Source: Selaginella tamariscina | Lineage: Eukaryota > Streptophyta > Lycopodiopsida > Selaginellales > Selaginellaceae | DNA length: 64,000 bases | Reading direction: 5' to 3' | Assembly: GCA_003024785.1 (NCBI GenBank) | Contig: PUQB01000215.1 | Location: 143,501 to 207,500 of the forward strand | Shown here: positions 18,053 to 42,509 of the stretch, in pieces | Position numbering within the stretch: the first letter of the stretch is position 1 | Layout: each line of letters opens with the position of its first letter | The notes under the pieces: model-generated | Databases searched by the model: none | What the model was told of the DNA's origin: nothing | The model's input: the letters and a program-made list of their open reading frames with translations, nothing else | Position numbers and translations under genes: made by a program

Positions 18053-18092
<40 letters not shown>

Positions 18093-18675: not shown

Positions 18676-18706
<31 letters not shown>

Positions 18707-18865: not shown

Positions 18866-21467
18866 ATGGCAGACGATGTGGTGGTTCTCAGAGCTACAGG
18901 GGAGACTCTGCCGAATGGACCTCTTGACGCAGGTGGCAATGGCGTTGTCTGTTTGTTAGCGACGCCTGCTCAAGCTGAAAAAGGGGAGTCTCTGTTATCA
19001 TTCTTAAAGAATCCCGAGGAAGGCTATGTACTCAAAGAAATCAAAGGGAAATGGTATGCGTGGAAGCCGCTCACCCCAGATCTGCAGGTCGTGCCAAGAG
19101 TGGCTCATGATATACATGTGTTTCTTATCAAAGGTAATAGTTTTGTGCTCCAAGTTCTCTCTGTATCTTTCATTCTGTGGTTACAGCGTCTCTGGTTCTT
19201 GATTCTTGATAGGGTTTTATTGTTGTGCTTTGGATCTGGTCTTAGATTTTGTGTGCTGTACGTGGCTTTAGCCATGTGGCACTGAGTTTGAAACCCGTGT
19301 CTCATATTGCTATGGCTTTGTCTGTGTCGACTTCATGGCCTCTTGATTTTGTGACATTCTTAGAGACTGGTCGGTTTTTGACTGGCGACGGCTTTCTGTC
19401 TCCAGCATCTCCGGAGCAGATATTCGAAGCCTGGGTGGATAAGAGAAAGGACTTTTTCGAATGCGATTTTGAAATACCTCTATCCAAGAATTTTGGGGGT
19501 CGTTTAGCTTCGAAGGTCAACCTGCCTTGCATTGGAAGAGTCCATGTTTACTGCTTCATGGTTTGGAACCTGGCATCACCAAACATGAGGAATTGCAAAG
19601 CAGGATACGGGCAGCAGGATCTGGCAAGAACCTCTTTCCGGTGCTGGGTGTCAGCGGGTGTGGAAAAAACTCGTCTGGCATACGAACTACTGGGGCATAC
19701 TTTTGGCTTTTACTTGGTTGCTGACGTTGACAAGAATGGTGGCTCCAGCGATATAAGTAGAGTGCAAAATGGAACACAGTACGGAGTTTCGGCCGTGGAC
19801 AACACTGCAATGGCTGAGCTGGCTACGTTACAGGTTATTCTGGCGAGGCTAATGATATTTGAGCACAGTCGGAAAAGCGTCACCGGTTTCACTCCTTGCC
19901 GCTGGCTTATGATGCAGGCATATTTCAAAGAATTCGTTGGTTATGACCCATTCTTAGAGCTGTCTGTGGCACTCGAGGCATGCTCAAGGTACTCTATAAA
20001 GCAGTCAATTGACAAGCTGTGGCTAGATGAAGCTGTTTGGGTGCTCGACGAGGCCCAAGTTCTTGGTACAGGACGAAAGATATTTCAGTCGGCTAAGACA
20101 AAACACCGGAGGCATGCCTTCTCTCCCATCCTGGCAAGCCTTTTGTATCCTAGCGACCGGGCATGGATTCAGAAGCATATAGTGGTCATCCTGGCACAGA
20201 GCTGAGCTTCTTGAGATTGGAGGAATCCATTGTATCAAAGCTTGCCTGGTTTAGAACGGACATGACAAGAGACGAACTGTTTATTTGGGACTTGCACACT
20301 AGCTGGTCTGAAGAAACTATCCAGGAGTACGTATCGTCTTTATTGGAGGTGGATATTGCGGTGGTTGCAGAAATGTGCAGGTGGCTTGTTGGTCGCAGGG
20401 GCCCGTAGCGACATTCGTGCAGCTTATATTACTCTCTGGAGACTTGCCAGGGGCTGTACTGGCAGAGTTTGTGCGAGTGTGTACACGAGAACGTAGATGG
20501 GTCCTTCTATGGTAGCATAGGAAAGCTCTATGATGAGGACAGACAGGGGAGCTTCTGTCTGCGAGGAGGTCAGCCCGTAGATTTTGCTGAAGTTCTTAGA
20601 ACAGTGGCTACGTTTGTTCTAACCGTGGGGGATGGCGAGATTATTGGTAGTGAACGCAATGATCTTCTATTAGTTGAATATGGGCTCGGGAATGTGACCA
20701 GGTTGGAACGGAACATGCTAGTCTTCACCATTGATGAGCCGTTGGTGAAGGAAGCCATGACGTGCTTCGCGTGCAGAAAGGTCTTGTAGCCCATCGGCTG
20801 AAGAGTCACATGACGTTGACGGTGGATGTTCCAAGCATTGGTGGTCGCATTTGGGAGAAATTGGCTTGTTTGGACATGGAGAAATGGTTCAAAACACTTC
20901 CGAGGCTTGAAGATTGTCCATGTTTCCAACGAGGGGAGATACCGCGGGCATGGAGGACTAAACGTGTGGAACTTTTTGGAGTGCGGCCTGATCTCTTGGC
21001 AATAGAGTCAACTGTGGATATACAGGACTTCATAAATGGGACAGGGATGTGGAAGTTCTACTCGTTGACGATTGGTCTGGTCCTGACATAATGTTCTTCT
21101 TGAAGATTAATGGAAAGCTGGTCCCCGTCTTCTGCCAGTTTAAGCTGAGGAAAAGACTCTCTGCAGCCGAGGCTAACAGGGATGTGAGAACAACACAGGT
21201 CGGTAAAATGTACCTGCACAACAAGGACAAACGGACATGCTTTTGAACGTGTGCAGCGATGGTTACATCTCTATGGTGATCGTGTTTCCTGTAACATTCG
21301 ATCCTGAAAAGCAGAAAAACAAGAGCAATGTGGCAGCAGAGAAACGGAGGTTGATTGGGTACGTGCAGGAGGCGCACATGGAAGCTATGTTTGCAGGAAG
21401 TCACGAGCTTCTTTGTGCATTAAGGGGTGTTGAGATTCGCCCTGGTAAGCGACCCAGACTCGCATGA
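18866..21467 (+). pseudogene. Crinkler (CR)-type protein: header, P-loop NTPase, REase-like region; frame broken
   Basis: Exon 1 (18866-19133) encodes an N-terminal header-like domain of about 89 residues starting MADDVVVLRATGE. A 230-bp GT-AG intron follows, and exon 2 resumes at 19364 in matching phase. Exon 2 carries a Walker A (VLGVSGCGK, about 19650), a Walker B of the CR type (VWVLDEAQVL, about 20040), and a C-terminal part with PDIMFFLKING...VPVFCQFKLRK (about 21080-21150), which resembles the restriction-endonuclease fold of CR effectors. Known family: CR proteins join a header to an NTPase and an REase or kinase effector, are abundant in oomycetes and fungi, and are reported in some plants and algae. 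The reading frame changes several times (near 19530, 19665 in an A run, 20190, 20400, 20450, 20760, 21050, 21240). It is either a decayed gene or carries assembly errors. Function in this plant is unknown. Confidence 0.72.
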
Positions 21468-21594
21468 ATTCGTAGTCCGAGCAAGGTAAACAGGTCGGTT
21501 AAATATTTTCTATGGTTTATAAAGAGGACAAGCCAACATGTAACGCTAAAAATAATACATACTAATACTTTTTCTTTTTGTTTAAATTTTACAT

Positions 21595-21755
21595 TGTGAG
21601 AGCTTGGAATATAGAAATGTGTATCTACATTAGTTCAGAAACCCTAACTTATATACAAGAGCGAGTGGTCCAGATTGAATCCAATCCGACGGCTATCAAA
21701 ATCCACTACGCTAATAATAGTATGTGCACATGCAGCCGTACACGTGGATCTTACA
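21595..21755 (-). repeat. 3' LTR of the short-LTR gypsy element
   Basis: 161 bp, TGTGAGAG...CTTACA. It is near-identical to 26298-26458 and adjoins the polypurine tract of this minus-strand element. Confidence 0.92.
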
Positions 21756-21826
21756 TCATCCCTCCTCTCGGAAGGGTGTAAGTTGGTTAGGGTTCTCTTG
21801 TAGACGGGCCCGGATCTGGAGGAACA

Positions 21827-24805
21827 TCAGGAGGAGGCACTGGTGGATCTATAGGCGGCACAACTTGTTCCCGTTGCAAAATGCTTCAACCGTTGTACAT
21901 GTACAATCTCCGGAGGATCGGGTTGAATGTCGTGCCGAACCTCATAAACCTGTGGTCCTACTTGCCGTAACACTCGATACGGTCCTTTCCATTGAGGAAG
22001 GAGACTCTTAGCTAAACCACGTACCGTAAGCTTGGGAAAACGAACCAACACCAGTTCATCAACCTTGTACTCCGCAGGAGGACGATGATGCGAGTTGTAC
22101 CGTTGTTGTTGTCCTACTTGTACGCGGCCCAAGTGTTCTGCTGACTCCGCACGAACCAATGGAAGGATGCTTGTCAGATACCGATCCCATGACCTAGCAT
22201 CAGCAGCTCGCGGTAACCGAGACGGCAAACCCAACTCCGTTGGCAACACCGGGTCATGACCATACAAAAGCTTATATGGAGAAGTACCAATGGAACTTTG
22301 AACTCCAGTGACATAAGCATATCGGAGAGACGGCAGATAACCATCCCAATCTGAATGTTGAAAGTTCACATACTTTGCGATCATCCCCTTGAAGGTTCTA
22401 ACAAGCCGTTCCACTAAACCATCTGTCTGAGGATGATAAGCACTTGTGAAAGTGTGGCGTATCCCTAATCGAGATGTCAAAACATGAAATGCCTCAGCCA
22501 TAAATGCGGGACCATTATCCGAGAGAATTCGCTCCGGACAAGAATGCTGAAACACGACCCGATTCAGGAGAAACTGACCAACAGCAGAAGCAGTCGCACT
22601 AGCAAGAGCACCAACTTCTACCCAACGAGTTAGGTAATCAGAAGCAATAATAACGTACTCGTTACCAGCAGTTGACCGCGGAAAAGGTCCCATCAAATCA
22701 AATGCCACCAATTCAAACGGACGAGAAACTGCAATTGACTCCAACCGTCCTTCCGAAGCACATGGGGGAGTATTGCGAGCTTGGCACCACACACAACTAC
22801 GCACATACCGAATCACATCTCCTCGCAACTCCGGCCAATAGAAAGATCTGCGCAGCTTCTCCATCACCCGACGATGTCCCATGTGCCCGCCAAGAATAGG
22901 AGAGTCATGGTAAGCATGGAGGAAGCGTGGAATGAAGATTGAAGGTACCACCAACCGCAAAGGATCATCTGGATCAGTCCCCACAAAATAAAGAAGGTCA
23001 TCCTGAAGGCGATACTGTGAATGTAAATGCCTGAAAGGCAAGTCATCAGCAAGTGATGCAGGATTCTCAAACCCATCACGAAGCCTTCGAATCCACGGCT
23101 CAACCTTTTGAGCTTCCCGAACCTCATCCAAAGACGGCAAATCTAACTCTGCATTCTGCGGACACTGAACGTCAAGCACAGCAACTGCTGATGGTACGGA
23201 ATCTTCATCCAAAAAGTCCACTGAAGCTGGAACAACTGGTTCCTCTGGGGCAACAGAAGAGAGAGAAGGTGGAAGAGGAGCCCGAGAAAGAGCATCAGCA
23301 TCAGCCATGGAACTCCCTGGACGATGAACAACTTCAAAGTCGTAAATTTGAAGTTTCAAGGCCCACCGAGCAGTACGCCCAATCAAATTCTTTCGCTTCA
23401 ACAACGAAGTGACTGCTGCATGATCACCTTCCAACAACGTCCGCGAACCATGCAAGTAGGCATGGAGCTTCTCAAAACCCCAAACTGCTGCTAGACACTC
23501 CTTTTCAGTTGTGGAGTAATTCACCTCTGCTGGCTGCAATGTACGGCTGATGTATGCAATGGGATGTCGTTGGCCAGGAACACTTGTACTCTCCTGCATC
23601 AATACACCCCCGAGGCCGATGTCAGAAGCATCTACACGCAAGATGAAAGGACGAGTGTAATCCGGGTACGCCAAAACTGGAGGAGTCGTCAACAACTCTT
23701 TGAGATCTGCAAATGCCTGCTTGCAATCCTTAGACCAAACAAAAGAAGTCATTGACGATTTCAACAACGCGCGCAACGGTGCAGTACGATCTGAAAGATG
23801 ATCCAGAAAACGACCCAGATATTGTACCTTGCCAAGAAAGCGTTGCACATCATTCACACACTTCGGCGTAGGGAACTTCAAAACTGCAACTAGTTTGTCA
23901 GGATCGACTTGCAAACCTTCACGTGAAATGCGATAACCCAGATAAGTGGTGTCCTTTGATCCAAATACACACTTAGATGGCTTCAACTTCAAACCAACTT
24001 CCCGCAGTCGATCCAAAACCTTACGTACATCACCGACATGCTCCTCCCACGTTCCATCCTGAATGGATCAAAACATCATCGATGAAATCGCATCCGGCAT
24101 GTCGCAAAGAACCTCATCCATCATACGCTGGAAAGTTGCTGGAGCATTGCTCAAACCGAAAGGCATCACCAGGAACTCGTACAGGCCAAATGGTGTTCGA
24201 AAAGCAGTCTTGGGAATGTCCATGTCAGCCATCGGAACTTGCCAATATCCAGATGCGAGATCTAACTTGGTGAACCAACGGCTCCGCCCCAGTCGATCCA
24301 AAAGGTCTGCAGTATGAGGAAGTGGGTACACATCTGAGACGGTTACCTCATTTAACGGGCGATAATCAATGCAGAATCGAACGCTCCCATCAGGCTTCGT
24401 CACAAGGTGAGGTTCGCACGCCCAAGGACTTCGAGACTTCCGGATAACACCCTTCTCCAACATCTCTTTGACATTCGCTCGTAAGATCTTGAGCTCCTTT
24501 GGTGATCGACGCCGAACAGGTACCTTGATTGGCCTAGCTTCTCCAGTTGGAATAGGGTGGCGTGTCGCAATCTTGGCCCCAGATGACAAGTCGAAGTTGA
24601 AAAGATCAGCATACTCCTTCTTGAGTTGATCAACAACTACAGCACGACGATCATCTGATGGATCCAAAGAAGAAAAGGAAGAGCATGAAGGGAAAATGGT
24701 TGGAAATAGGGTGAGACAAAAGTGATGGAAGCAGAGGTGGAAGCAGATGGACGAAGTGGAATAGAAGTAAGAGGAATGGAAGAAAGACGAGGGAGAGTCA
24801 AACAA
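21827..24805 (-). pseudogene. pol: gypsy Pol: reverse transcriptase, RNase H, integrase
   Basis: 24805-24068 covers the RT fingers and palm (SVRFCIDYRPLNEV, FTKLDLASGYWQV, PFGLSNAPATFQRMMDE). The catalytic FIDDVLIH lies at about 24070-24095 but is crossed by frame changes. From 24016 a single 729-residue open frame runs through the RT end, RNase H (DASDIGLGGVLMQ, TTEKECLAAVWGFEKLHAYL), the integrase HHCC finger and the DDE core (VAFDLMGPFPRS, ILSDNGPAFMAEAF, YHPQTDGLVERL), and ends after a GPYRVLRQVG tail. The long intact frame fits a young insertion. The breaks near 24050 would inactivate RT unless they are assembly errors. Confidence 0.88.
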
Positions 24806-25089
24806 GGGGGAGACTTTTCAAAGTCACACTTGGCATGATTGCGAGTTAACCAATCCATACCAAGAATAAGGTGAAAAGCTTGACTCGGCACCACCCGCAA
24901 AGATTGAAGCTCGAGCTCACAATCATCCACACGAACAACAATGTCCACTTCATCCCGCGAACAAGCATGAGTATGTCCGTTGCCGTACAGAATGAAGACT
25001 GGTTCTACCGCACGACGCAAATGAAGGCTGCAACGTGTAGCAACAGATTGAGAAACAGAGGACAAACTTGAACCTGTATCCACCAACAC
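24637..25089 (-). pseudogene. gypsy aspartic protease domain
   Basis: Retropepsin motif MLVDTGSSLSSVS at the N end and LILGMDWLTRNHAKCDF downstream, typical of the gypsy protease and its flap-side Asp-Trp-Leu. It lies between the Gag knuckle and RT and overlaps the RT frame start. It is part of the same polyprotein. Confidence 0.82.
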
Positions 25090-25209
25090 TGAAAGGAAAA
25101 CAGGATGAGTGTGCGATTGAAACGAGCTTGAAAAGTGAAAACCGGATGATTTGGTGCCGAGTGAACCCCTTGATGATACTCCCGAAAGAAAGATGGAGGG
25201 GTCACTAAT

Positions 25210-26137
25210 TTATTCGCACGAGGACCCTCCTCTACTCGTGCGATTCGTCGTTTCCCGGAAGATCCACCGCATCACAACCTTCCACTGCAGCAGCACCAAC
25301 CGGACGTTGTTGCGCCATGGCCTCCATCCTGGAAATGGGGGACGCCAATCGGGAAACCGTTGACAGCGCCGATACGTGTGTCCAACCTCATCACATGCCC
25401 AACAACGAACTGCACGTCCACGTCCTCGTCCACGGGCCCCACCTTGTGCTGGTACACGAGCGGCAACAGCCTCAACCTCCATCGGAGCAGGTCCATCCCC
25501 AACATGGAGTGGAACAAGAGCACGTGAAGGCAAGTGGGAGAGGTGACGACTCATATCGTTGTGCCAGCCTCAAAGCATCGTCAAGAGTCACTGGAGCTAG
25601 TGCATGCACAAGCCCCACAAGGTCTTGACGAAGTGCTGGCCACAACATACCTAACTTGATGCGTTCCGACATGTTAGGTTCTGCACGCAGCAAAAGGCTT
25701 CGAAAGCGAACACCAAACTGCATCACCGACTCAGATGGCTCCTGACGAATACGATGCAACTGCTGAAAAGCATCATCACAGTCGTCCGCATGCCCAAATG
25801 CACGTTTGAAGATCTCTGGAAGAATATTCCAATCTCCACGAGTTGCAACGTCCAGACCATTGTACCACTGCAACGCCGTCCCTTGAAGACAAGTAGGAAA
25901 CTCGCGCAAACACTGAGCACCGTCCCACGAATGATATGTGGCAACCACAGTGAAGTGGTCAAACCAATGGTACACATCATCTCCAGGATTTCCGCGAAAG
26001 AAATCCGGTCGGACACGGGGGTTTGCAACATGTAGGAGGAGTACCCTGGCTGTGAATGCTGCCATCAACTGAGAATGATTGTTCAGTTGCACACGCATGG
26101 CATCCAACAACTGCATGAGTAACTGCTCCACAGACAA
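25210..26137 (-). pseudogene. gag: gypsy Gag with CCHC knuckle
   Basis: The Gag core reads from about 26137: DFFRGNPGDDVYHWFDHF, FPTCLQGTALQWYNGL, LRQDLVGLVHALAPVTL. It is followed, after a frame change near 25500, by an RG-rich stretch (GGARGRGRGRA) and a knuckle CWACDEVGHTYRRC (about 25400). No ATG is evident at the N end in this frame, so the true start is uncertain. Confidence 0.8.
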
Positions 26138-26297
26138 GGGATTTGCTGTTGTGGATTCATGGATGAAGAAGAGACAAAATCCACAAGAAAGGAATAGATC
26201 TAGACAATGGAAAAGCTAGACCTAAGAAGACAGAGAAAAAAGACACAAATCCGAGCACTCCGTAGGGACAATTAGAGGTGCCCCTCACCTCCACCAA

Positions 26298-26458
26298 TGT
26301 GAGAGCTCGGAATATAGAAATGTGTATATCCATTAGTTCAGAAACCCTAACTTATATACAAGAGCGAGTGGTCCAGATTGAATCCAATCCGACGGCTATC
26401 AAAATCCACTACGCTAATAATAGTATGTGCACATGCAGCCGTACACGTGGATCTTACA
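26298..26458 (-). repeat. 5' LTR of the short-LTR gypsy element
   Basis: 161 bp, three differences from 21595-21755. It is followed by ACATT, which matches the left flank for four bases. Confidence 0.92.
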
Positions 26459-29400
26459 ACATTAGTTTGAATGAAATATAAAATGTTTAGTGCAACTACT
26501 GATGCTTCAGTTGCCAAGCTAGCGAGCTCATTGAATAGAGAAACAAGGCCAGGAACAGTTCTGGCTTCCACAATGCAGAAGGTGTCTTGGGGTTACACAC
26601 TCCTCGGTGGACTGATGGTGTGGTGGTTCTGAAGCACATCCAGCCTGTGGCTGTGAGAGGAGCGCTCAGCTTGGTCGTATTCGTGGTCATGTTTGATAAG
26701 ACCTGTGCTGCTTTTGTTTTGCCGTTAATGTCCATGGAATTTAGTACTTAACCAGCAGTGTGTGTATCTCAGACTCTGCTAAGTTTTGCTTTAGATCCTG
26801 TGCATACATACATTCATTATGCAGCTTAATGTGTGTGGTGTGTGAGTGAGAGAGAGAAGAGAGAGAGGGTACATACACAGTTTATGTAATGCAAGGATAC
26901 GAGAAGAGAGTTAAGTCGTCAGTATATGTGTAACACACATATATACATGTTTGTGTGTGAGAGATAGAGAGAGAGAGGTATATACGCATGAGTGGTCAAG
27001 GCTTGGTAAAGCGTTCAAGAGCACCGAGAGAAGTTTGGAGTTTATCTTCTTTAATCTGAGACAGGAGAACATGAATAACCCCAGCATCAAGCAAGTCTTC
27101 ATAACCTCATTGTCAGGACACTACACAACACACTAGAAGCGTATATTCCCGTCTACATTGCTGCTCTCTATACGGCGTAAGTTGCACATTGCACATATAT
27201 ATTCAATGGTAAATATATATTATACACAAGTAAATGTTAAGAACGATTGGATGAAAAGCATATTACATGGAATATGATTCATAAGAGAGTATATTCCTCT
27301 TATATTCTTAAAGTAAACATATAAGTTGAATAACATAAACACACATGTTGTAATATTTAAGTTTTAAAACAAATAAAAATAAATAATTATATCACCAAAC
27401 AAGTTACTTTTTATTCTTTTGACTCACTGAAGTCATTTTCTTTAAACACTTCCGTCCTAAGGTTTATGTTTGCATTTTCAAACAACATTTTAGTCAGAGC
27501 ATCCATTATTTTAAAGTCTCAGTAATTACTCATGGCCTAACATATATTACTTTATTACATTGTTATCGTATTTTTCAAAAGTTCTTGCTAAAGCTTATAA
27601 GAATCAATCGTATTGCTTTCGCTTAATATAAACTATAAATAATGCTTTAGTTACCTCACTCTCATTAAACTTGCATCGCTTAAAGATATCTCTCACCCTT
27701 AAAAAACTAATGTACTTTTTCCTTAACTTTTATTATAGTTTCTTTTTCAATTTTAATTATTAAAATTATTATCATGTAAAAGGCACAAGGTGGTGAAGAA
27801 ACAATATGTAGCCACTTGATCAGGTTAACTTGTTATCATTCCTCTTCATAAAAAATTTTAAAACGAACTTTCAATTCACAAATTGCACACTCCATTGGCA
27901 TACGACTGCTAAATTGAATGAAATTCTAATAATACTTCATTTGATTTAAACCTTGTTAAAGAGACAACATCCAAGGTTTAACAATATAATAATATCTTAA
28001 CTAAATAATATGATTTAAGATATTTCTTCTTAATCTCAAACAAGTTGCTAACTTATTAAAAATATTGGAGTCATGCAAGCTACTACCCATCCAATATCGT
28101 AATCTCATATATATTTTTTTACTAAGAATAATCAACTGAAATTAATAGAATGAAAACCCTTTATATTATAATAATCTTCAGAATTAAGTTTTAGTGCAAT
28201 CATTTGTAAATAACTTCATCAATAGCTCCAGCAACACTAAAAATGCCTCTAATCTTTTAAACTCTTTAATTAGTTTCTCTAACCTTTGTGGTGAATGCCA
28301 AGCAATGTATTTATCTTAAAACTTTATTTTTATTATATTACAAAACTCTTAATTATCTTATGCACTATTGTCATTCCAATACAGTACTCATCCACAATAT
28401 CCTTAATGAGATTACCATTGCCTAACTTAGTAAGAGCAACACACACTCGTTTCTCAAGTGGAATGGCTTATTATAGATGAGTGTCATGTTATTGTAAGTA
28501 TGAGACAAGTTCTGTACATAGAAATGAGAATGTATTTCGTGATACACGCATCCTTGATTTGAACATAACATCATTATAAGAAACAATAAGTATTCTTTCA
28601 ACATACACATTGGGCTTATTATACATCCAAATGGATAGAGTTTCTGCTTTGCCATGCCATCACATTTAATGGCCAATTCAAAAGCCTTAAGAAGTAGCTC
28701 ACTTACAACATACTTATGATGTTAGTAGTTTCTTTTAACATACCTCAAATATAGATTATAATTACAATTACAACTCAAATGAGTTATTTACGGTCCATGT
28801 CTCTATGCCCAAAATCCATAATTAAATGCCACCAAGCCACACAAGACGACTAGTGGTAACTCTTACAAAGATATTTAATAACATTAAACCAAAGAGTGAG
28901 CACATAAAAGAAGTAGAAAAAAAAAATGAGCTTTAGAATGACACAACAACTGTTGCTTGAGAGATAAAACTCTTGCAAGTATTGGGAAGGCAAGGGTTTA
29001 AAGCCGATTAAAAAGAGTATAAAGTTCCTTGTAAATATGCTTAAAGCTTCTTTAGAAAATCAATAAAATGTTTTGTTACAAATTTCTGAGTCACAAACTC
29101 ATAAAGACACATTGAGAATAGAGTTTGATAAGGAGTAGTGAGAGCAAGTTCATGTTGATAAAGAAGAGAGGGATGTGCTACTAGAGGAGTTGAGAGTTAT
29201 GGCAAAAGCATGAAAATGATGAAAACTGTAATGGAGATGCGTGAAGGTAAAACTAGAGTCAACATTATATATCACATTCATTATTAATATAGTTTAGTTT
29301 TTGCATGTTTCATGTTTTTAATATACTCTTATATTTTTAAATATCATCTTAATTAGTTAAAAGTGTGAGTGAGAACGAGGAACATCATTAAGTATCATAT

Positions 29401-30959
29401 TAGATGTAGATGACGTTGATAAGTTATTTAAAGTATCATTTTAATTTATGCTTTATTTTATTTAGAGAGTAGTTTAAAAGTCATAGTAGACATGTAGAGA
29501 GAGCAAGACTTAAAAATAGAATATTGTTTGATCCTTTAAATATGTAGTTGTTTGAAGAAAATAGGTTCTTTATAGCTTGTAGATATAGGGATGTTAAATC
29601 TTAATGGGTGAAGCATGTAGTATTGTGTGATTTAATAGTTTTTTGATGGCTTATTATAATGAAGAGCGCTAGAGAGACATTTTAAAGAGGTTTCTTTGGT
29701 TGTGTTAGATGCTTGCTGAGGACTTGAAACATCAAGACACAAACTATAAATTTGTTGTGCCCATTGTTGTTCAAGTTGCTTGCACATTATACAAGTTGTT
29801 GAATAATACAAGCTTTTTAAATTTGTCAAAACGGTTTGCTATTGATTAGTCCATAACAATTCAATATTTTAAATAAACTTGTGAGACAAGCATATAAGTA
29901 TTTAATACAAGTTGAAGTGGTCAAGTCAGTTAGGAAAGATTGTGGAGATTATTATTAGATTTGAAGAGCTTTCTATGGTAGAGCATGATAATGACTATTA
30001 TAATAAAAAAGTAAGTATACAATTGTAAGGGGAATTTGCACACATGATATCCTGGCTTTGTGCATGATGGTAGAATATGGAGGCTATGTGGTTTTCAATA
30101 ATGTTGTTGCATTTCATCCCTTAACTTGTATGTCCACTCGTTCATATTAGGAAGGTTCTCTTTCTTAAACTTTACAAAAGTCATCTTAAAGTAAGCCCCA
30201 TTACCATTATGAATTTGATAATCATGTATTATACAATAATTTAAAAGTAAATTCTTCACAGTCTTATCTACATTCTTAATTATTACTTTGCAACAATCTT
30301 CTTCCATTAAATATCAACTTTCTCAAATTTGTCTCACGATGAAGAATATTATTATTGATGAAGTATCTCTTTCGTTTTGGTAGTGATTAAAGTGTCAATT
30401 TCATAAACCTTCCAATTTAGTGAACGCTCTCTACCTTAAAAGTAAAAGGAGCCTCTACTATTAGTTTTGTTTCAACTAGTGCAAAAGGGGGTGTAGAATA
30501 ATAATTGGTGTAAAATTAAATGTTATTAAAAATGAGTAACCAAAGGGAGTAGCTATTGAAGGTGTGGGAATAGTTGCAGATGGTGTTGTAAAAGGTGTGG
30601 GAATATGTGTGCTGGATTGCTATTTAATCTATTGCTAAAATATTATATGCATTTTCGAAACAACTTTACTTGGATGCACTAAAACCTCCTTGTGCCATGT
30701 TTAGACTATGTCCAAAAGTTTATAATTTGTAAAAAACCTTCAATAAGCTTTAAATGAATCTTGTTAAATTACTAGTGCCCCTTAAATTTTACATTGAATT
30801 TACTAAAATTGTTTAAATTAATTTAACTAATTTGGTGTCAACATAAACAAATTTTAGTAAATCTTAAATTTGGTGTGAGTGTGATCTAATTTAGTTAAAT
30901 CCATTTTAACTATTGGTTTGAGTGTGCTGTATTATAAATAATAGACCCAACGAAATTGT
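26459..30959. other. Long AT-rich spacer, no supported gene
   Basis: 26480-26750 is less AT-rich and has short plus-strand frames (one with a hydrophobic VSWGYTLLGGLMVWWF end) that I cannot identify. 26840-26985 has TG/AG microsatellites. 27140-30950 is strongly AT-rich without recognisable coding sequence. Small frames there (such as 30095-30307 minus) look random. Confidence 0.5.
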
Positions 30960-31364
30960 TTGTTGAAGAATGGATCAGGATGCCAAAGCTGTGAGCTTTT
31001 GTTGCTTTCTTCATATTATATACACAATGCATTTCTTAAACCAAGTGTTCCCTTCTGTCTCTCTCTCACATGCACGCACACACACATTCCTATCTATCCA
31101 AAATTCAAGCAGGCGGTGACAGGTTCACTTTTACATGAAGACGGGCAACCTTTATCTGTTGGTTGTTGATGGGATATATGGAGAATGGAGAGAAAACATG
31201 GCTATGGAACCGTTGAATGTTACGAACAATACCACTACTTTTGTTACTGCACTTCGGAGTTGGAATGGCCACTCCATCTGTATCGATTCCAAGCACATGC
31301 AAATTGTTTGGGTGAAGAGTTTATAAGTAACGAACAACTTTACACGTAACGGACTACATCTTCA

Positions 31365-33037
31365 CTACAGTGAGGATCCCGTATTTCTTGTGTATTTGTC
31401 TCGGGTATTTCCTCTGTATACACTTGCCAGCATCACATACGTGGCAGCACGCTTTGGATCGAGCTCACCGATTCTTTGGCAGCGATGGAAGCACGCTCTA
31501 CATCTCCATGCATGCGGCAAGCAGCAAGGAGCGACATCCAGGAGATTGCCTCGGGCAAGAAGGCATATTGTTGATTAGATCCTCGGCCTCGTCTAAACGC
31601 TTCAAACGACCCAGAAGATCCACCATGCACCGGTAATGCTCCACTATCGGAGCCACTTTGAAGTCATCAACCATAGAGAGGAAGTACCCGTGTGCGTCCT
31701 TAATAAGCCCCGCGTGACTACACCCTGCTAAAGCCCCAGAAACGTAACCTCGGTAGGCCTTAAACCCTCGAGGTTTAGCTCCCAAAACATCTCGAAAGCT
31801 TTGTTAATCTGCCCAGCCTGTGCGTGTGCATGCATTATCGAAGACCACGTAACGAGGTCCCGCTCCTGCATCTGATTGAATATACGTTCGGCTTCGGTGA
31901 CGTTACCATTCTGTGCGTATGCCTGCAGGATTGCATTCCAGGTTACCTGGTTCTTGTAAGGAACGCTATCAAATACACTCTTGGCCTTCGACACTGCACC
32001 TCGCTGTGCATACGCCGACAGGAGGATGTTCCTCGAGACAGTGTTTGGCGTCGGTATGGAGTTGAACGTGCTCTCGGCTGCCTCCAGGTCACCGTTCTCA
32101 ACAAACGCCGATAACATTGTGTTCCAGCAAACCACGTCCCTCTGCGGTATCGTTTCAAAGATCCTACTGGCTGCTTCCAGGTCCCTCGCTTCCGCGTATC
32201 CGGCAATCATAGCCGTACACGAGACAACGTCCCAGTACGGCATCTTTTCTAGAGCTTCCCTTGCCGAGGAAAGGGAAGTCGACTCGATATAAGCCTGAAC
32301 CATCGTGTTCCATGACGTCACCTCTCTCTGTGGCATGGATTCGAACCAGTACCGCGCGTCGTCCAGATGCCCATGATATGCATATGCAGTTAACATGCAT
32401 GTCCATGATATAACATGCCACTGAGGCGTCCTTTGAAAGACATCCTTTGCGGAAACAAGATCCCCACTTGTGGCGTACCCTGTTATAAGTGAATTCCACG
32501 TCATAAGGCATCGTATAGGCGTCTTATCAAAGACCACTTTGGCCTCCTCCGGATACCCGTTCTGGGCATATCCTGAGATCATGGCAGTCCACGAAATAAC
32601 ATCCCGATCCGGCATGCTCTCGAATAGCTTTCTGGCCTCGTAAAGACTCCCACTCTGTGCAGCTCCAGTGATAACCGTATTCCATGAGAGTATCCCTCGA
32701 GAAGGCATGAGAGTGAACGCTGTACGTGCTTCGGAGGTATACCCATTCTGGGCATATGCACCGATGAGGATGTTCCACGAGAAGACGTTCCGGTGGGGAT
32801 ATTCTCAAAGACGAGGCGGGCATCTTCGGGTCTTCCGCATTTGCCATACATGTCGATAAGGAGGTTACGGAGGTATGTCTCTTGGCTATGTGGGGACCGG
32901 AGTATTAGTTGGTGTGTTTGTCTGCCTCTTGTGAGGTCCTTTAGTTTGCTGCAAGTGTTGACCAGTGATGCAAGGTGTGTGATACCTTGTGTTATATGTT
33001 CTTCTTCTGGGTAACTGCGGCCAATCTGCCGTGCCAT
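31365..33037 (-). CDS. Pentatricopeptide repeat (PPR) protein, intronless, four homopolymer frame breaks
   Basis: From the ATG at 33037 the frame gives a short leader, then about a dozen tandem PPR units with the signatures LLIDMYGKCGRPEDARLVF, DRDVISWTAMISGYAQNG, QREVTSWNTMVQAYIE, QRDVVCWNTMLSAFVENG and ERDLVTWSSIMHAHAQAG. An E-like region follows (MVDLLGRLKRLDEAEDLI ... LDPKRAATYVMLASVYRG) and ends near 31365. The repeats are mostly the short 31-residue S type. Known role of the family: sequence-specific binding of organelle RNA for editing, splicing or stability; the target here is unknown. The frame breaks near 32805 (C run), 31755 (G run), 31575 (T run) and 31475 (A run), each explained by one missing base in a homopolymer. 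No DYW tail is seen. I cannot tell assembly error from pseudogene. Confidence 0.85.
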
Positions 33038-33156
33038 ATGTCATAACAACATCTCACTTACATATATAATATCTTATATATATATATATATATATAATAT
33101 AACAACAACTTCACTTCACGTATATGCACATCATAAGCTCGGTCATGTATATGCTT

Positions 33157-33209
<53 letters not shown>

Positions 33210-34740
33210 CTTACATTGTAACGTGCTTTACAGGTAAGGGTTAGGAAATTGTTGCAAGCGAATCCCGGACTCGTATATATTTATTTAGTGCATATGTTAC
33301 TATTATTATTTATATAATTCATAACTAATCATAAGCCAGTAGTTCACACAATAATGAATATAAATTTTTATAATTATAATGTAAACTTAGCAATATTAAC
33401 TGTCTAACCTATTTTGTTTATATGTATGAAACTTGTATTCCAAGTCTGTAAAACATAGAGAGATAGAAATGGATAGCAAGGCTTGTGTTTAATTCTATTT
33501 GAACAGTTTCAATCTTAATTGATGTAGTTGCAACCATAATAAGATCTAATTCACATAGTAAAATGTTCTTGTCACGTACTGATTGAATGCATTAGAAAAA
33601 CATTTCTTTAAATTTTTTAATTAAAAAACTGAATAATTCTGTCCATTAATTATTAAAAGAGAACATTCATTATTAAGCTCGTACAATACATTAAGTTTAT
33701 CAAAAATAGTCTTTGTCACATCTACTTCCATATGCTTTGTTGACAATTTATTAAAACCTTAGATGCACACTTATTGAACTATCCCAAACAACTTATAAAT
33801 TTTTGAACTATCCCAAACAACTTATAAATTTTTACTTCTTTTATGGAAATTAAAATTTTAATTTGTGTAGCATCTTGTGTATGAATCCAATTTTGAGTAT
33901 TAATTGTAATTCTTTGGCTCCTATATATTTGGAAATCGATTTAGAAGCTCTTATAAATCAATTTGATAAGGTTCACAAGAGAGATTAATAAAAAAAATTA
34001 AAAAAATAAAAAATAACCCACATATGAAACAACTTTAAAAAATGCATAAATTCCATATTGTAATTATAAATTATGTTTATAAAGAAAATAATCAGAAATG
34101 AAGATTACCCATGTGTTGAAGCATGCATACACACCTTCAATACACATCTAATTAAAACCCAAGATCATATCTTATCATTGAAAATGCACATGAAGAGATA
34201 ATGTCTTTGACATATGACCCCAATTAAATAAAACATAACATGCATGTGAAAAAAGATTAAAAGATGTTTATATAAGTGTTTATTGAGCAAGCTTCCTTGA
34301 GTATCCGAACACCTTATGACATAATATTATAATAACATGATAATATTACAAACACAAGGATTTCACAACCGCATCAACAAATCCCTCTTTACATTAATAA
34401 TGAGAATTAGTTTTTATATTCATCATCAAAAAGATAAAACACATCTAATAGACTAAGAATATAACTTTTATATCTTGTGTCATTTACTTTATATTTCGAA
34501 GGTTAATTATTATTATTTATTAAACTTAGTATCGAGTATCATAGTTTTTTATCATGAATGTTTTTTATTTTGACTACTAAAATGCCCTTGATGTAATAGA
34601 AAACAAGCACGTTTAATCCACTTGGGTGTCTACTAATAGTCCGGCCAGATGTCATTACATATTTTTTAAAAACTCTAAATGAAGCTTAAAATTTATCTTT
34701 TAGAAAACTTTTTCTTCATTTTTTAATCATTGATTCCAAT
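33038..34740. other. AT-rich spacer with microsatellites and a short duplication
   Basis: (AT)n near 33075-33095; (CT)n(CA)n at about 33158-33207. A ~29-bp unit (TTGAACTATCCCAAACAACT...) is tandemly duplicated at 33774-33831. I see no gene. Confidence 0.6.
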
Positions 34741-36058
34741 GAGTTTGGTGTGTGATATAGAGTCTGAAACACCCCTAAGATAAACCTAACCCTAGGCTTG
34801 CCCTAACCCATGGCCTAAACCCCTCAAGTAGGTGGGTCATTGGGATTGGAATTCTGTGCAAACTCACTTTATAATAATAAAAAATGGGGGCGGTAGGAGT
34901 GGGAGTGGGGGGGAGGGAGGGTTCATGCCAGTGGGGAAAGGGACTAAAGATCTTTAAGTCTCTAATCACACCTCATGCCAAGTGACCATCCATCATCAAC
35001 ACCATGTGTAAGCAACACTAAATTTTTTAAGATGATCACTAAAGTTAGACTTAGATGCCCAAATAGGCATGAGACTTAGGGTCTTGTCCTAAGTCCTTTA
35101 GAGTGATGATGCTTTAAACCCTAGAGGATAACTCAAGTAAACTTCAGGATTTTGCCACAAGAAACCTAAATAAGTTAGGAAACATGCTTTGCACATACCC
35201 ACATGACAAAGTTAAGGCATCATGACTTACCACTAGAGAAATCACCCTCATCCGAGAGTATAACTCCTTTAAGGCGATGAGGCACAACTAACCCCTAAGG
35301 GTTTGTGATGCCAAAATATACCCTAGACTTAGAGTTAGGACTTAAAGATAACACGAGTGTGCATTATAGGTGAACACAAGTGTTTTGCTAAATAAACCCC
35401 TTAAGTCTAGGTTTGAATATGTCATAGTTCTAACCTGGTGAGTTGACTACCTGGGTAAAGATTGTGGGATATGTGGGATATATGGGCAAAAAGACCCAAG
35501 CGGACCTGGGTCATCATGACCAGGGGCCCTCTCATAAACACCAATTGGCTCTTTGCCTAGTTGGCATAAGGGGAGAGGGAAAGGTTGTGACAGAATATGA
35601 CCATGCAAGTGCCTCATGAAAATGCTCTTGTTAATGAGCTTAGGTTGGTTAAGCCCTTCACATGTTCACACCCCAAGGAGAACACCTCCTAACCAAGTGT
35701 GCTAACTAACACACTTAATTACAAGACTTAACCTTTCTTAAGCAAATGCACAAGACTTAACACCCTAATATAAACACAAGCACGCATATTTACTAAGATA
35801 TTCAACCCCTTGGTGACACAATTCCAAAGGGTGTGCTTTGAGTGTTGTACCATGTGCTATTTAGCCTAGTGTCACATGTTTATGTGACACTGTTTTTTAA
35901 GTTAACACATTAGTCAGGCTTATGCTAGTAGGGAAGAAGGAACTAAACACTTCTTAGTCTATGACATGCTTTCTCCACACCTACTCTACTTAATATATAT
36001 GACACGAGTTCTCTTTATCAAGTTTCTAATGAAGAATTCCATGGTTAGCATATGTGAG
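34741..36058. repeat. Non-coding repeat family copy
   Basis: Shares ordered words with 13319-14000: AAGTGCCTCATGAAAATGC, CACTTAATTACAAGACTTAACC, CCTAGTGTCACATGTTTATG and TTCAACCCCTTGGTGACAC. 34870-34925 holds a G-rich run (GGGGGCGGTAGGAGTGGGAG). No open frame resembles a protein. Confidence 0.6.
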
Positions 36059-36389
36059 TAGGGCTGCCAATGGGGTGGGCTAGTCCATGGGTCGACTCAA
36101 CTTGACCCATCATGGTTTGGGCTTGGGCCGGAGTTTTCTAACCCATGGGTTAGGTTGGGCCAGCTGTTCTAACCCATTTAATAAGTGGGCTGGATCGAAG
36201 GTCACACTTGATTAATTAAATTTTTTTCAAAATGTATTAAAATTTGTATTATACAAGATACTATACAAGATCTAGCTCTCTCCCACGTGGCCATTGGTCC
36301 ATTACGTGGACATGTTCAATATCGATTCCGTTTTACTACATGTTACAAATTAATCCGTTAATCAATGACTTGATCTCTAAAGGTTTTAG

Positions 36390-37960
36390 TAACCAAGTCA
36401 TACCCTAGTTTAGGGCTAATACCTAGCGAAGACATGAATGTGCACCAAAGGCAAACACGAGTGTTTTATTAAGGTTAGGTTTGGACAACCCTAAGCACAT
36501 TTTACTACACGAATGCCTCACAAAAGGGCCCTACTAAGGAGTTTAGGTTGTCCAACCCATGAACACATTTACATACTTCTAAGGTGAACGTCCCTAGCCA
36601 AGTGTGCCAATTAACACACTTGGATAAGAAACCTAACCTCCCTTGGGTAATGCTCAAGGCTTACACCTTGATGCAAGCATAAGCCCACTTGCTTGTCAAG
36701 ATGTCCAACCCCTAAGTGTCAAACATGTGACACAACTCTTATACAAGGTTGTGCCTTGGGCGTTGTACTGTGCACTATGTAATTCAATGTCACATGTTAA
36801 TGCAACACTGTTTCCCAAGACATAGGGTGTCTCACCATAACCTCTCAACTTAAGAATTGCACCTGGTGCCATGAGCATGTCTCACAAATGCGAACCTTGG
36901 AACCCTTCCATGTGAGTCAATTTGTTAACCAAGATCTCAAGCCCATAATTGGAAAAGGACATGGAAGCCCACACTTAACTACGAGTGTAAGTCTTAGCTT
37001 GATGTGAAGGAGGAGGCTAGAAACAAGCATCAACCTCTAATCCTTGAAATGTGTACTCTAACAAGACCTCCCAAGTGCGGATTTGCTGACGATAAAAGTA
37101 AGCTACCCTTAGGATGTGACATTCCTTATGGACTGAAAAGTTAAGGTAGCATAATATGGGTTGTGCCTTGACAACATAAGATAAAACTTGTATTGGTAAA
37201 AAAATAATGAATTCAATTATGAACCTATGAACTCTCTGTACAACTATCTTACCTTATTTTTGTAACAAAGCCCCCCCAATTGTGTGAGTGGGCTAGTTTG
37301 AATATACATATTTCTCAAGACAGGCTATCGTTATAACCCCTTAGAGACAAGAGTTATACCTAATGCCACGTATGTGGCTCACATATAGGGCTGACAATGG
37401 GTTGGAGCTTGCCCCATGACCTGACCCATTGCTCTCTATGATGGCCCTAATCCCCCAGCCCAGTACAAGGGTCATAAACTCTAGTTTGTGACGAGTTGAG
37501 TCAGGTGAACCCATGGGCCAACCCATCTTTAATGCCACATTCTTTAGGTCACCACACATTTTTTAGTCCATATTATTGGTACAACTATAAATCTTCCCAT
37601 AATACCATTAGCAACCCAAGTGCCAATCACCCAATCCCCCAAGTACTTAAGTACCTTGTTGCCCTACAGGGGTTGTACTCCCAAATGAGAGTGATTCCTC
37701 AAGAAGTCGATGCCTTAATTTTGTCATAAGGTATGTACAAAAGGATGACTCTTTGGTGAGGTTAATGCATGAGCATGTCTAAGTATTCTTGACAGGATCT
37801 TGAAGTATGCTTGGTTAAATACTCTAAAGGGACTTTGGGTGGGACCCTAAGTCTCATGCCTTTAATCTAGACTTATTTTAAAAACTTAGTGTTGCTCACA
37901 TATGATATGTCAGATGACCACTTAACAATCACGTGTTACCACATGAAATTTTTAGTATAT
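36390..37960 (+). repeat. Non-coding repeat family, one or two adjoining copies
   Basis: 36420-37250 matches 6600-6723 + 13319-14080 in order (GGGCTAATACCTAGCGAAGAC, TTTGGACAACCCTAAGCAC, AATGCCTCACAAAAGGGCC, TCCTTGAAATGTGTACTC, TTGTGCCTTGACAACATAAG). 37320-37380 restarts at the TTATAACCCCTTAG/AATGCCACGTATGTGGCTC block, so a second partial copy adjoins. 37870-37945 is the terminal CTTAGTGTTGCTCACAT block. Confidence 0.65.
37381..37528. mobile_element. Short (~148 bp) MITE-like insertion with imperfect inverted ends
   Basis: Compared with 13657-13675, where CACGAATGTGGCTC runs straight into TTAATGCCA, this copy has CACGTATGTGGCTC, then 148 extra bases, then TTAATGCCA. The insert begins near TAGGGCTGACAATGGGTTGG and ends near GGGCCAACCCATC, partly complementary. 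A TAGGGCTGCCAATGGGG start also occurs at 36059. hAT-type non-autonomous elements in plants have such TAGGGCTG ends; the class is my inference. Confidence 0.5.
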
Positions 37961-39937
37961 CAACTTTAAATATTTAAATGCATTAAGTGGGATTGTCACA
38001 TTAGAAGGTCTAATGTTAAAGTTTTAACTCAAATGGACAACATGTTAGATAGAAATACCCTAAGGTTGCTTTAACTTATTTACCAACTAGTTGGGGTAGG
38101 GTTTAAGGGTTCTATTATTATATTGTTATTCTCATTAATTTATAATAAGACATGCAACTAATATTATATATGGATGTGATAGATATCGATATATATATAT
38201 AGCAATATATGTGTGTGTGTGTTGGTTACTTATGGTCAATAATTTAATTATGATTATTATCCATGACATTCGTACACATATACATTCATATACATATGAG
38301 TACATTAATATATGTATATAAACTCAAGATTTACATGTAAAAAGAAAAACAAGTTAAAAAGGCAGAATGCATAAAACGCACACATTTACAAAAAGGAGTT
38401 AAAAATGTGCAAAACGAATTAAAAAGGCAGGATATAACTCAATCAGAAAATAGTATTAAAAAAAACGAGAGACTTACAACTCTAAAGAGCAATAACATAA
38501 TACTATAACAAGTTTACATTTCATTTAAATGTTTGTTCTATTTAATTTTATTTATAATTTATGTAAGCTTATTATTTATTATTATTCATTTGATATAAGG
38601 TATTTCAATTCAGTTGTTTTCTTAATAATCAACATTAGTATCTCAATTATAAAGACCTTTATGATATATAGTTATTTTCACTTTATATGTGATATATCTA
38701 AAAACATAAATTTACTTATTAAGTTACTTATAAAAATAATTTAAGAAGTTTTAAAAATAATTCAACGAATGCAATAAAATCATGTATATTATTATTACTT
38801 AAACCTTATTATAATTTGAAATATGCAGTACCCAAAGTAAAGTCAATATTGTAGTGCATTAAGTATAAAATGTTTCAATTTGTATAAAATTAATCATAAA
38901 TTATTACAAACTAATTATAAAGTTTGAATGGTACATTTACTTTTTAGTCTTGCCATTTTACAATAGTCATTATGTTGTTCAATACCATCTAAATTACCCT
39001 ATGAAGTAATTATAAATGAACACGAGTTAAGATGCATAAATATTCTTGGCTTTGTCCATAAGGATGTTAAACGATTAATAATAATATATTTAATAGCTAA
39101 AAAAAATAATATTCTATTTATTATAGAAACATTACATGACATCCATAATAAATTCCTTATTGTAATAAATAATATGTTTATTTTAAAATTATTGGGTCAA
39201 CAAAATTTGTATATTTAAAAATACTTATTTATACATTTTGACTATTTACATACAAAGACTGATATTTTCTCCAAAGACTATACAAATTAGACATGTTTTA
39301 ATTATATGTTTATATAATTGTTTGATTAATATTTTAATGCAGGGACCTGGCTCTGAAACGTTGAGCACTGGAACTGTTTCTTTGCAGGTAATCATGAATA
39401 TTGGTAAATTTACTATTTAAGTATTTTTAGATATATTAGTTATATATAAATATATTATACGATATTTACTATTTAATATAACGTTATTTAATATTTTATT
39501 TGGAGTGTGAATATTAAACACGTTATATTAATTATATTTAACATCTTATACAAATATGCAATATAGATTGCACTAGTATAACGTAAGTATATATAATACA
39601 GATATATATAAATGTATATATATGGAAGCTTACTTATAAGCTCAAAAAAAATCACCGCCGCCTGACTGATTTTGATTTTGATTCTAATTCCCAAACGCAT
39701 TTAACTTGGCTCTAATGCTGTCAATTGATGCTCCATTTGTCAATTGTTCTTGTAGCTTCTTCCTACATCAAGAGCAAAGTCTTAGTAAGACCTTATATGC
39801 ACACACAGACACATTTAAAATACTAAATAGTAACCTCATAATATGTAATGCATACTAATAACATGTTAAGCTATATGTAATCAAATTATTATTATAATAT
39901 TATTAGTAAGTTATTAATTAGGAGAATAATAATATTA

Positions 39938-39988
<51 letters not shown>

Positions 39989-40831
39989 GTTTTATTCTAT
40001 TGAGTGTGTGTGTATTTGATTATTTACCTTCTATTGTTCATACAATGGTATAGTGATATCATAATACTCAATTAGCATATAACTAATATATGATTAGTAC
40101 TTATCAAATTATTATACGACTTAATAACTAACATTATATATGTGTGAATTGAAAACAAAACAATTAGTTATATATGTATGGGCTCTCACGCATATTATAT
40201 TTATATAATGTTATTTATATATGCCTACGCTGTAGACGAACAAATGAGATCCTCAGGTATGTGTACCTGTTAATGAGGTATCGATTTTAAGAGTGTTCAC
40301 CAATCTGCACCAGATACGTATAGATACATACACATATAAATGTATTTATTCACGAACGTGCACACCCACACAAACATGTAATGTAATGCGTGTAAAATAC
40401 CTTTGCAAAAGGTGGTTGCAACACTGTGTTTGTATATTATGTATGTGTGTATGATGTATACAAATGAGAAAAATGGAACAACTACCCATCATTTCGTTTG
40501 AGAGCGCCCCGGAGCATATATACGTGTGTGTACATGTGAATGATATATTTTATATATTCAAAAGATGGTGTGCGCTGCATACTATAGTTTCGATTGCTAT
40601 GCACAAGTAATTATACGGTACACACACATATATCTGTGTGTGTGTGTGTGACTGTATATTTTCTACGCATCTATATGTGTTTACGACTCAAGTAAAATTA
40701 AATAAGCGTTTGCAAAATGGCCGATGACATACATACTCGCAACTGTTCACAAGTGCATATTCAAACATGAGAATAAGAAATCGAATCGCGGAATGAATGA
40801 AATTAATTTGCGCTAACAGTGAACTAGGGCA
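37961..40831. other. AT-rich spacer with isolated exon-like islands
   Basis: Strongly AT-rich, with (AT)n near 39943-39985 and (TG)n near 38211-38221 and 40637-40650. Two GC-richer islands look exon-like (39343-39387 plus, 39684-39762 minus) but cannot be linked to a gene. Confidence 0.5.
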
Positions 40832-42509
40832 TTGGCAATGGAGTTGTTCTGGCTGAAGAACGAAGGGAACGGGGAGGTGGAAGCCTTCTTGTGTAAGGAT
40901 TCAAAGCTCCAGCTAGATTTGATTGCACGGCGTTGGAATCTTGACTCATGGACGCTGAGATTCGGCCGCATCGCTTTGGAGAGGCTCGGTAATGGAGAAT
41001 CGCGCTGGGAAACTGGAGTGATCAGAAGTGTCGCGAGTGATGCCGGTTTGGGCGATGGGCAGACTGAACAAACTGCTATTCCAGTCTCTGGTAAATCAAG
41101 GTGAGTAGCGAAGATAGGGTAGCAGGCATTCCATACTGGGGTTACTCTGATCTGCTCAAGATACCTCCTTCGAGTTGCGACAACAAGAAAGCACGGACTT
41201 TGCAGGAAGATGCGGATGAGCCCGCCGTTCTCAACTTCCGCCCATCAGAACATAAGCCGCAGATTCCTCTCCAGCTAGCCCATCGTGCATTCGGTACCTT
41301 CTGGGACATTTTCTATGGAGTCTCAAATGCCCCACAGCCTGGTAAAGAAGACTACGAGATGTTTATTAAACTCAGCGAAGAATGTTCCAAGTACATGGAA
41401 AGCGAAAACAGGGAATACAGAACTCACGTTTGGGAGAGCTGGTTGGATTATACTGGCTTGCGCTTGAAATCGCCTTTTTTACAGGGAAATCGTCAGGGAT
41501 ACCGAAGAAGACATTGGGTACGAGCTTAGAGTAGCCGATGGTCTCAAGGGAATTATCCTAGCTCTATTCTTATTGTAGAGGCAAAGCTTGGTACGTGCGC
41601 TGATCCATGCTTTCGGTTATCGCAGCATTATCGACTCTACTGGGCCAAGGTTGGAACGTCTGGTATGTTCACCAACACGTCTTTTCCGGCGATTGGGATC
41701 GAACACGTAGGTCCTTTCATCCGTGTGTCTGCACTAGCTAATCTCCGGCAGGTCTCTCTTCAGCCGCTCACTCCATTCATCAATCTGCTGATGCTACAGG
41801 GCCATGACTTGGCAGCAGCAGAAACTGGAGCTCGCCTGTGTTTGGCCACCAAGTCGGCCTTGTTCGAACTCAATGAGTATTATCAGGATGTTATACAAGG
41901 GAAAGAAGCGGCTTCATCTAGGAACTACTTTGAGAAAGGCATCCCGTATCCGCTTCACGGAGAAGCTATCTGTCCTGTAAGATGGGGAGAGAAGCTGGTG
42001 TATGCGATCCCTGAGAAGGAGATGGTGGTGAAGTATGTGCAGAGAGATTATGGTACAGCGGTTCATCTCGCATGGGCTGAAGCAGGTTACGCTCCAAACT
42101 GTTGGGTGTGCAGCCTTATCCTGGCGGCTGGACCGAAGTTCGCATGGAACACCTTGGAGGCGACTGGACAGTGCTGCAGGCACTCAATGAGGATGTTGCC
42201 GATTCACTTAGGGATGAGGTGGTGCAGGTTCTGAAGAGAGCTCATCGTGTTCCTGTTGGAAATTCGGTTGGAGTACATGGAGACATGAGAGATATCAATG
42301 TGATGGTTCACCTATCTCGTGATGGGGATCTTTTGGAAGTCAAATTCATTGACTTCGACTGGGCAAGGGAGGTAGGAGGGCGCTATCCTTCCTTCATGAA
42401 CCATGCTGGGGTTAACTGGCACCACGGTGTTGGTGACCGCAAGCCTATGTTACAGGAACATGATATTCAACTGCTATCTACAAAACAGGTCCAGCAAACC
42501 ATCCGCTAG
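40832..42509 (+). pseudogene. Crinkler (CR)-type protein: header, REase-like centre, kinase-like C-terminus; frame broken
   Basis: From ATG 40832 a ~90-residue N-terminal region (MAMELFWLKNEG...) resembles a CR header. The centre (about 41570-41900) reads ILIVEAKLG, then FRLSQHYRLYW, then GPFIRVSALAN, SLQPLTPFINLL and FELNEYYQDV. This matches the order of the nuclease-like module I know in fungal and oomycete CR-kinase proteins, with E-x-K as the metal-site pair. The C-terminus has a kinase catalytic loop HGDMRDINVMVH (about 42275) and IDFDWAREVGG (about 42350) as the DFG equivalent. It ends with TAG at 42507-42509. Frame changes lie near 41100, 41480, 41560 and 42100. The first resembles a splice donor (AAG|GTGAGT), but no suitable acceptor keeps the following conserved residues. 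It is a decayed or mis-assembled gene; function unknown. Confidence 0.68.

What the first reader, a model, noticed from the sequence alone, without database searches (positions are those of the whole stretch)
18866..42509. Two Crinkler (CR)-type effector genes, NTPase-REase and REase-kinase, about 20 kb apart in a plant genome
18866-21467 shows a separate header exon, Walker A VLGVSGCGK, CR-type Walker B VLDEAQ and a nuclease-like PDIMFF...FCQFKL block. 40832-42509 shows a header-like start, an IVEAKLG nuclease-like block and a HGDMRDIN/IDFDW kinase core. These are the two classic effector classes of the CR superfamily, best known from oomycetes, chytrids and arbuscular mycorrhizal fungi. Having both in one 64-kb window suggests a local or genome-wide CR expansion, possibly as a plant defence or conflict system, or transfer from a fungal partner. 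The role is my inference.
Basis: partly seen in the sequence, partly recalled or inferred. Interest (0 to 1): 0.9.

Follow-up and report, generated by a model that had tools for sequence, protein, structure and literature searches.

The report
Shuffled Crinkler-like conflict genes in Selaginella
A spikemoss genome carries dozens of Crinkler-like genes in which the same front-end exon sits before different enzyme bodies and one enzyme body sits behind two different front ends, so this plant likely builds its own predicted nuclease and kinase weapons by mixing parts.

Summary
Locus A (18866-21467) is a header exon, a predicted 230-bp intron, and a P-loop NTPase plus nuclease-like body. Locus B (40832-42509) is a nuclease-like block plus an HGDxRxxN/DFDW kinase. 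Neither is one open frame here. A copy of A on contig C1377 is open; A's body differs from it by 2 substitutions and 8 frame-shifting indels, and an indel-rich non-coding flank points to assembly error as much as decay.
The genome (300.7 Mb) is a Selaginella: relatives of B's kinase class include S. moellendorffii proteins. It holds 26 header-1 matches (23 places) and 52 kinase matches. Header-1 precedes at least five body types by my reading. A's NTPase-nuclease body sits behind a different header-2 at four other loci, plus a remnant at a fifth. In A the two homology blocks meet inside the intron. Another locus encodes a header-2 relative, an EVK block and a protein kinase in one frame.
This is Crinkler-like modular architecture in a land plant, apparently shuffled through introns. 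Membership is not proved: no header profile matched, and the ubiquitin-like fold rests on a low-confidence model. A defence role is inferred. Crinklers in land plants were reported in 2016 (read second-hand).

The parts
18866..19133 (+). Locus A header-1 exon (ATG to predicted GT donor, phase 1), 89 codons plus one base
   Evidence: sequence; 26 matches in own genome; AA(A/G)GGT right after the HV/HL...KG end at 14 of 23 places
19134..19363 (+). predicted intron; header-family DNA homology ends no later than 19224, body-family homology starts at 19286
   Evidence: no RNA evidence
19364..21467 (+). Locus A body exon: P-loop NTPase (Walker A 19641-19667, DEAQ 20041-20058) and nuclease-like block (PDI...QFK about 21079-21147); reading frame interrupted in this assembly
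21592..26462 (-). Ty3/gypsy LTR element next to locus A (168-bp LTRs, 97% identical), absent from the C1377 copy of the locus
40841..41104 (+). Locus B N-terminal open piece, header-like by eye only
   Evidence: no support from profile comparison
41095..41660 (+). Locus B middle pieces with nuclease-like IVEAKLG block (41572-41592)
   Evidence: motif only
41660..42509 (+). Locus B kinase part: N-lobe piece, HGDMRDIN (about 42275-42300), IDFDW (42348-42362)

Best explanation
Locus A belongs, and locus B likely belongs, to a large set of Crinkler-like genes of a spikemoss (Selaginella) in which header exons and enzyme bodies occur in different combinations, likely made by recombination inside the first intron, and whose products are predicted to act inside the plant's own cells as ATP-switched nucleases (A) and nuclease-kinases (B). 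Shown: one header exon before several different bodies; one NTPase-nuclease body behind two different header exons; in A the two homology blocks meet within the predicted intron; open copies exist. Inferred: the header is a ubiquitin-like domain that localises or recruits the protein; the NTPase is the switch that holds the nuclease off until an invader or mobile element is sensed; the PD-(D/E)xK-type block then cuts nucleic acid, while in the other class the kinase modifies target proteins; exon mixing keeps producing new combinations.
For: Header-1: 26 matches, three of them second pieces, so 23 places. Bodies behind it: NTPase-nuclease (L061 = window, L062), PGAGKST NTPase (L063, L078), GNPGIGKS NTPase (L064, L068), GNPGVGKT NTPase (L065), GVAGVGKT NTPase (L076), and an EYK block plus HYDVRLANV kinase (seen in L072/L088; five other places cluster with it). 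Header-2 (20 matches, 17 places) precedes the body of A at L033, L034, L036 and L037 and, as a broken remnant, L035; header-1 and header-2 do not align. Junction: header-family DNA homology ends at 19023-19224; body-family homology starts at 19286/19287 in all matches over 1,800 bp, seven loci. GVSGCGKTR (GVSRCGKTR in L033), DEAQ, SGPD and PVFxQxKLR are shared by L087, L033 and L055, the last only 30% identical. L090, a header-2 relative (42% identity, E 5.5e-6), encodes header, EVK block and Pkinase (52.5 bits, cut-off 31.7) in one 657-codon frame. Header-1 model: strand order b-b-a-b-b-b; 39 of the 50 listed structural matches have titles naming ubiquitin-like, DIX, PB1, FERM or Ras-binding domains. 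Kinases L026/L027 dN/dS 0.24.
Confidence: 0.6

Rival explanations
1. Selfish or decaying repeat family: the genes spread with neighbouring retroelements and most copies, A and B included, are non-functional remnants.
For: Many copies are fragments or carry stops; LTR elements lie near both loci; dN/dS 0.91 between two open bodies.
Against: Open frames of 486-742 codons exist in several classes; dN/dS 0.24 for one kinase pair and 0.24-0.46 for four header pairs, though 0.62-1.75 for three others; indels in A resemble assembly noise, also frequent in the non-coding flank.
Confidence: 0.25
2. Recent transfer of a Crinkler set from a fungal or oomycete associate, or contamination of the assembly.
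For: The best studied Crinklers are from oomycetes, with a large set in an arbuscular mycorrhizal fungus (passages of PMC5289972 and PMC6131194); L090 also hits Pkinase_fungal just above cut-off (24.7 against 24.1 bits).
Against: Copies lie on dozens of contigs; a PPR gene and an HSP70 exon share the window; S. moellendorffii has the kinase class at 85% and 47% identity to L024, within one of several clades.
Confidence: 0.07
3. Plant immune or regulatory STAND-NTPases and kinases that merely converge on the CR layout.
For: Some bodies weakly resemble nSTAND3, NPHP3_N and NACHT, all below cut-off; a kinase matches APH above cut-off (L024, 26.3 against 23.2 bits).
Against: Interchangeable headers with NTPase-nuclease and nuclease-kinase bodies fit the published CR description and not any plant NLR known to me (recall).
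Confidence: 0.15

Closest known systems
Crinkler (CRN/CR) proteins of oomycetes and fungi
   Same: N-terminal header, ubiquitin-like in published CRNs, followed by variable C-terminal bodies, NTPase+REase most common in Phytophthora; header end is a recombination hotspot (HVLVxxP) (PMC5289972 section 5, PMC11064341 passages)
   Different: Here in a land plant, header and body are separate exons across a predicted intron; header-1 ends in HVFLIKG and has no profile match to a named family; secretion signal not examined
CR proteins of land plants and free-living eukaryotes (Zhang et al. 2016, known here only through PMC5289972)
   Same: Presence of CR proteins in non-parasitic eukaryotes including land plants, with a proposed role in inter-organismal conflict
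   Different: Two-way header/body swapping with a mapped junction is documented here for one genome; whether Zhang et al. listed Selaginella I could not read
CRN8-type REase-kinase
   Same: L090: header, EVK block, protein kinase in one frame; locus B: EAK block plus kinase
   Different: B's kinase is of the APH-like HGDxRxxN/DFDW kind; its own piece scores below the Pfam cut-offs

Membership tests
Crinkler (CR) superfamily | N-terminal ubiquitin-like header domain | tested here: inconclusive
Crinkler (CR) superfamily | Header recognised by a curated Crinkler profile | tested here: inconclusive
   No Pfam family for 14 header-1 copies at E <= 10 and no Crinkler family for two other headers. 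PF20147 is recalled; I did not confirm it is in the library, and every genome search with it did not complete
Crinkler (CR) superfamily | One header type joined to interchangeable C-terminal bodies | tested here: met
   Header-1 before at least five bodies; one body behind header-1 and header-2. Adjacency in DNA, splicing not shown
Crinkler (CR) superfamily | Recombination junction at the HVLVxxP end of the header | tested here: inconclusive
   Junction falls after HVFLIKG, inside the intron; HV and position shared, the proline motif is not; L090 has HLVHVPP
Crinkler (CR) superfamily | NTPase followed by REase | tested here: inconclusive
   Walker A, DEAQ, PD...QxK shared by three sequences; L055 AAA_22 E 4e-4 below cut-off; body model failed
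Crinkler (CR) superfamily | REase followed by protein kinase | tested here: inconclusive
   Kinase met in L090 (Pkinase 52.5 bits); nuclease part by motif only
Crinkler (CR) superfamily | Nuclease or kinase activity in cells | not testable with these tools
   needs bench work
APH-like kinases (PF01636) | Score above the curated cut-off | tested here: inconclusive
   L024 26.3 and P0001 25.6 bits pass the cut-off of 23.2; B's own piece 16.1, P0003, P0002, L018 and L011 do not

The most novel reading that the evidence does not exclude
A land plant runs a combinatorial arsenal: intron-borne shuffling of at least two header exons with at least five nuclease, NTPase and kinase bodies, a eukaryotic counterpart of bacterial polymorphic toxins used as the plant's own intracellular defence.
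Probability: 0.35. Interest if true: 0.85.

Novelty: new variant of a known kind. Interest (0 to 1): 0.62.

Why it matters
Crinklers are mostly studied as weapons pathogens use against plants. A vascular plant that carries a large, apparently still recombining set of its own would make the proposed origin of Crinklers in non-parasitic conflict directly testable, and gives open plant copies to assay. The intron junction offers a concrete mechanism for header/body swapping.

Tried and rejected
Homolog searches with one open piece each of A and B found nothing at E <= 1 (2,533 and 423 candidates), perhaps because the pieces are divergent or partly out of frame; the alignment of kinase frames then found S. 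moellendorffii. Viral and phage collections gave no relatives (for A; for B, five pattern matches, none confirmed). PDB sequence searches of pieces and of the body profile gave chance-level matches; the kinase profile listed protein kinases at E 0.026 or worse, L090 protein kinases at 8e-8. A header upstream of L055 looked right by eye and failed. N-termini of the kinase class against header-1: no match; against header-2: weak (31%, P 5e-4); against B: none. The body model was unusable, so no fold search was made with it. Identification as S. tamariscina rests on recall of genome size and contig number; a paper search did not confirm it. A certain pseudogene reading of A was rejected because indels outnumber substitutions in the body and in the right non-coding flank; in the upstream stretch substitutions outnumber indels, 157 to 72. 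Papers: Zhang et al. 2016 not held; passages only of PMC5289972 (plus its section 5), PMC11064341 and PMC6131194; all others seen only as search listings.

Full report
Observation. The motifs are present at the stated places. Locus A has an ATG exon at 18866-19133, a predicted phase-1 GT-AG intron at 19134-19363, and a body exon to 21467 with Walker A, DEAQ and a PD...QxK block. Locus B has an EAK block and a kinase with HGDMRDIN and IDFDW. In this assembly each is split over several frames.

Origin. The window lies in a 300.7-Mb assembly of 1391 contigs. Seven window frames scanned with Pfam show a PPR gene, an HSP70 exon, a WD40 frame, and gypsy and copia elements. A profile of eight kinase frames (A2) retrieved five proteins at E <= 0.1 among 7,995 scored candidates, including S. 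moellendorffii proteins at 85% and 47% identity to L024. The host is therefore a Selaginella; S. tamariscina is my recall from size and contig number. Contamination is very unlikely.

Family size. In the own genome, B's kinase piece has 52 matches, 41 of them at E < 1e-4. A's body piece has 40, about ten places at 50% identity or more, the window included. Header-1 has 26 matches, 23 places after merging second pieces. Header-2 has 20 matches at E <= 0.1, 17 places, some weak. The tool calls such counts lower bounds; some rows are second pieces of one locus.

Mosaic structure. The same header-1 exon is followed by different bodies: the NTPase-nuclease of A (L061, L062); a PGAGKST NTPase (L063, L078); a GNPGIGKS NTPase (L064, L068); a GNPGVGKT NTPase (L065); a GVAGVGKT NTPase (L076); and a body with an EYK block and a HYDVRLANV kinase (L070-L073, L077, L079 cluster together; the kinase was seen in L072/L088, where Pkinase scores 19.9 bits, below its cut-off of 31.7). 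A clustering of the 23 places by translated downstream DNA gave nine groups; one (L063, L065, L067, L074, L075) is linked at least partly by non-body sequence, and weak similarity joins some groups (L064 and L065 134 bits, L064 and L076 94), so some NTPase bodies may be distant relatives. An uninterrupted P-loop lies within the held 1.5 kb at 7 of 23 places; in the window's own copy it is cut by a frame change. L080 and L081 are header fragments beside a PPR gene, and L085 shows no body. L083, a diverged header, is followed by a kinase-like piece that no Pfam family matched.

Conversely, A's body occurs at L033, L034, L036 and L037 behind a different exon, header-2, with a broken remnant at L035. 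Header-1 and header-2 do not align (hhalign 0.3%; HMM at best 2.1 bits). Leaving out the window's own and the C1377 loci, DNA homology of header-1 copies to the window ends at 19023-19224, and homology of the body copies starts at 19286/19287 in all matches over 1,800 bp, which come from seven loci; some body copies have a weaker 75% block at 19216-19290. The join lies within the intron. Headers were not seen at every body locus: neither header has a match on C616, C516 or C531.

Open copies. The C1377 copy of A (L087) has an open 742-codon frame of which 703 codons are body; L033 and L055 have 710 and 728. Six kinase loci have stop-free frames of 486-516 codons. L090 encodes a header ending in HLVHVPP, an EVK block and a protein kinase in one 657-codon frame, Pkinase 52.5 bits; its header is a header-2 relative (42%, E 5.5e-6). 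Open copies therefore exist. For the window's copies decay and assembly error cannot be told apart, though indels outnumber substitutions in A's body (8 to 2) and right flank (41 to 18), as expected of assembly error; upstream it is 72 to 157.

Kinase tree. Of 29 fetched kinase loci besides the window's, 20 had HGDxRxxN in a stretch of at least 100 open codons and entered the tree with B and P0001-P0005 (26 rows). B groups with L002 (97/95). S. moellendorffii P0001 and P0003 sit in one of several clades, together with P0002 of unnamed source. P0004 and P0005, from unnamed short contigs, join B's clade at 80/77.

Selection. Of ten pairs: dN/dS 0.24 for kinases L026/L027; 0.24-0.46 for four header pairs but 0.62, 0.98 and 1.75 for three others; 0.91 for bodies L087/L033; kinases L024/L014 saturated. 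Constraint is thus shown for some parts only; recent copies are near neutral or fast-evolving.

Mechanism. By analogy with published Crinklers (passages of PMC11064341: Ubl may help entry into the nucleus, REase gives toxicity, NTPase regulates it), A is predicted to be an ATP-gated nuclease and B a nuclease-kinase, acting inside the plant's own cells. The trigger and target are unknown.

Novelty. Crinklers in land plants were reported before (PMC5289972, citing Zhang et al. 2016). In the open library one paper holds both Crinkler and Selaginella, a review seen only as a listing, and two hold Crinkler with exon shuffling, seen only as listings. The two-way exon swapping with a mapped junction is, as far as these two searches show, not in print; most subscription journals were not searched.

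Noticed in passing
window 21592-26462: Gypsy element inserted about 125 bp past locus A; the C1377 copy lacks it (empty site). Its LTRs differ by 5 of 168 bases, more than the 0.45% substitutions of the flank, which is hard to reconcile with an insertion after the copies split.
   Followed up: partly
window 16576-18865: Sequence upstream of locus A is only 88% identical to the C1377 copy, while header exon and body are about 99.2-99.5% identical: a sharp change near the start codon, perhaps recombination or gene conversion.
   Followed up: partly
G000 contig C1370, about 580-750 kb: Local cluster of nine kinase-class matches, two of them weak.
   Followed up: no
window 31728-33037, minus strand: PPR gene also appears split by a frame change, consistent with indel noise in this contig.
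   Followed up: no
window 44631-49183: Copia element with about 180-bp LTRs (95.6% identical), frame interrupted in the polymerase.
   Followed up: no
L080, L081: Header-1 fragments lie just upstream of PPR genes, with no Crinkler-like body seen.
   Followed up: no
P0004, P0005: Kinase-class relatives on short contigs of unnamed organisms; possibly algae, untested.
   Followed up: no
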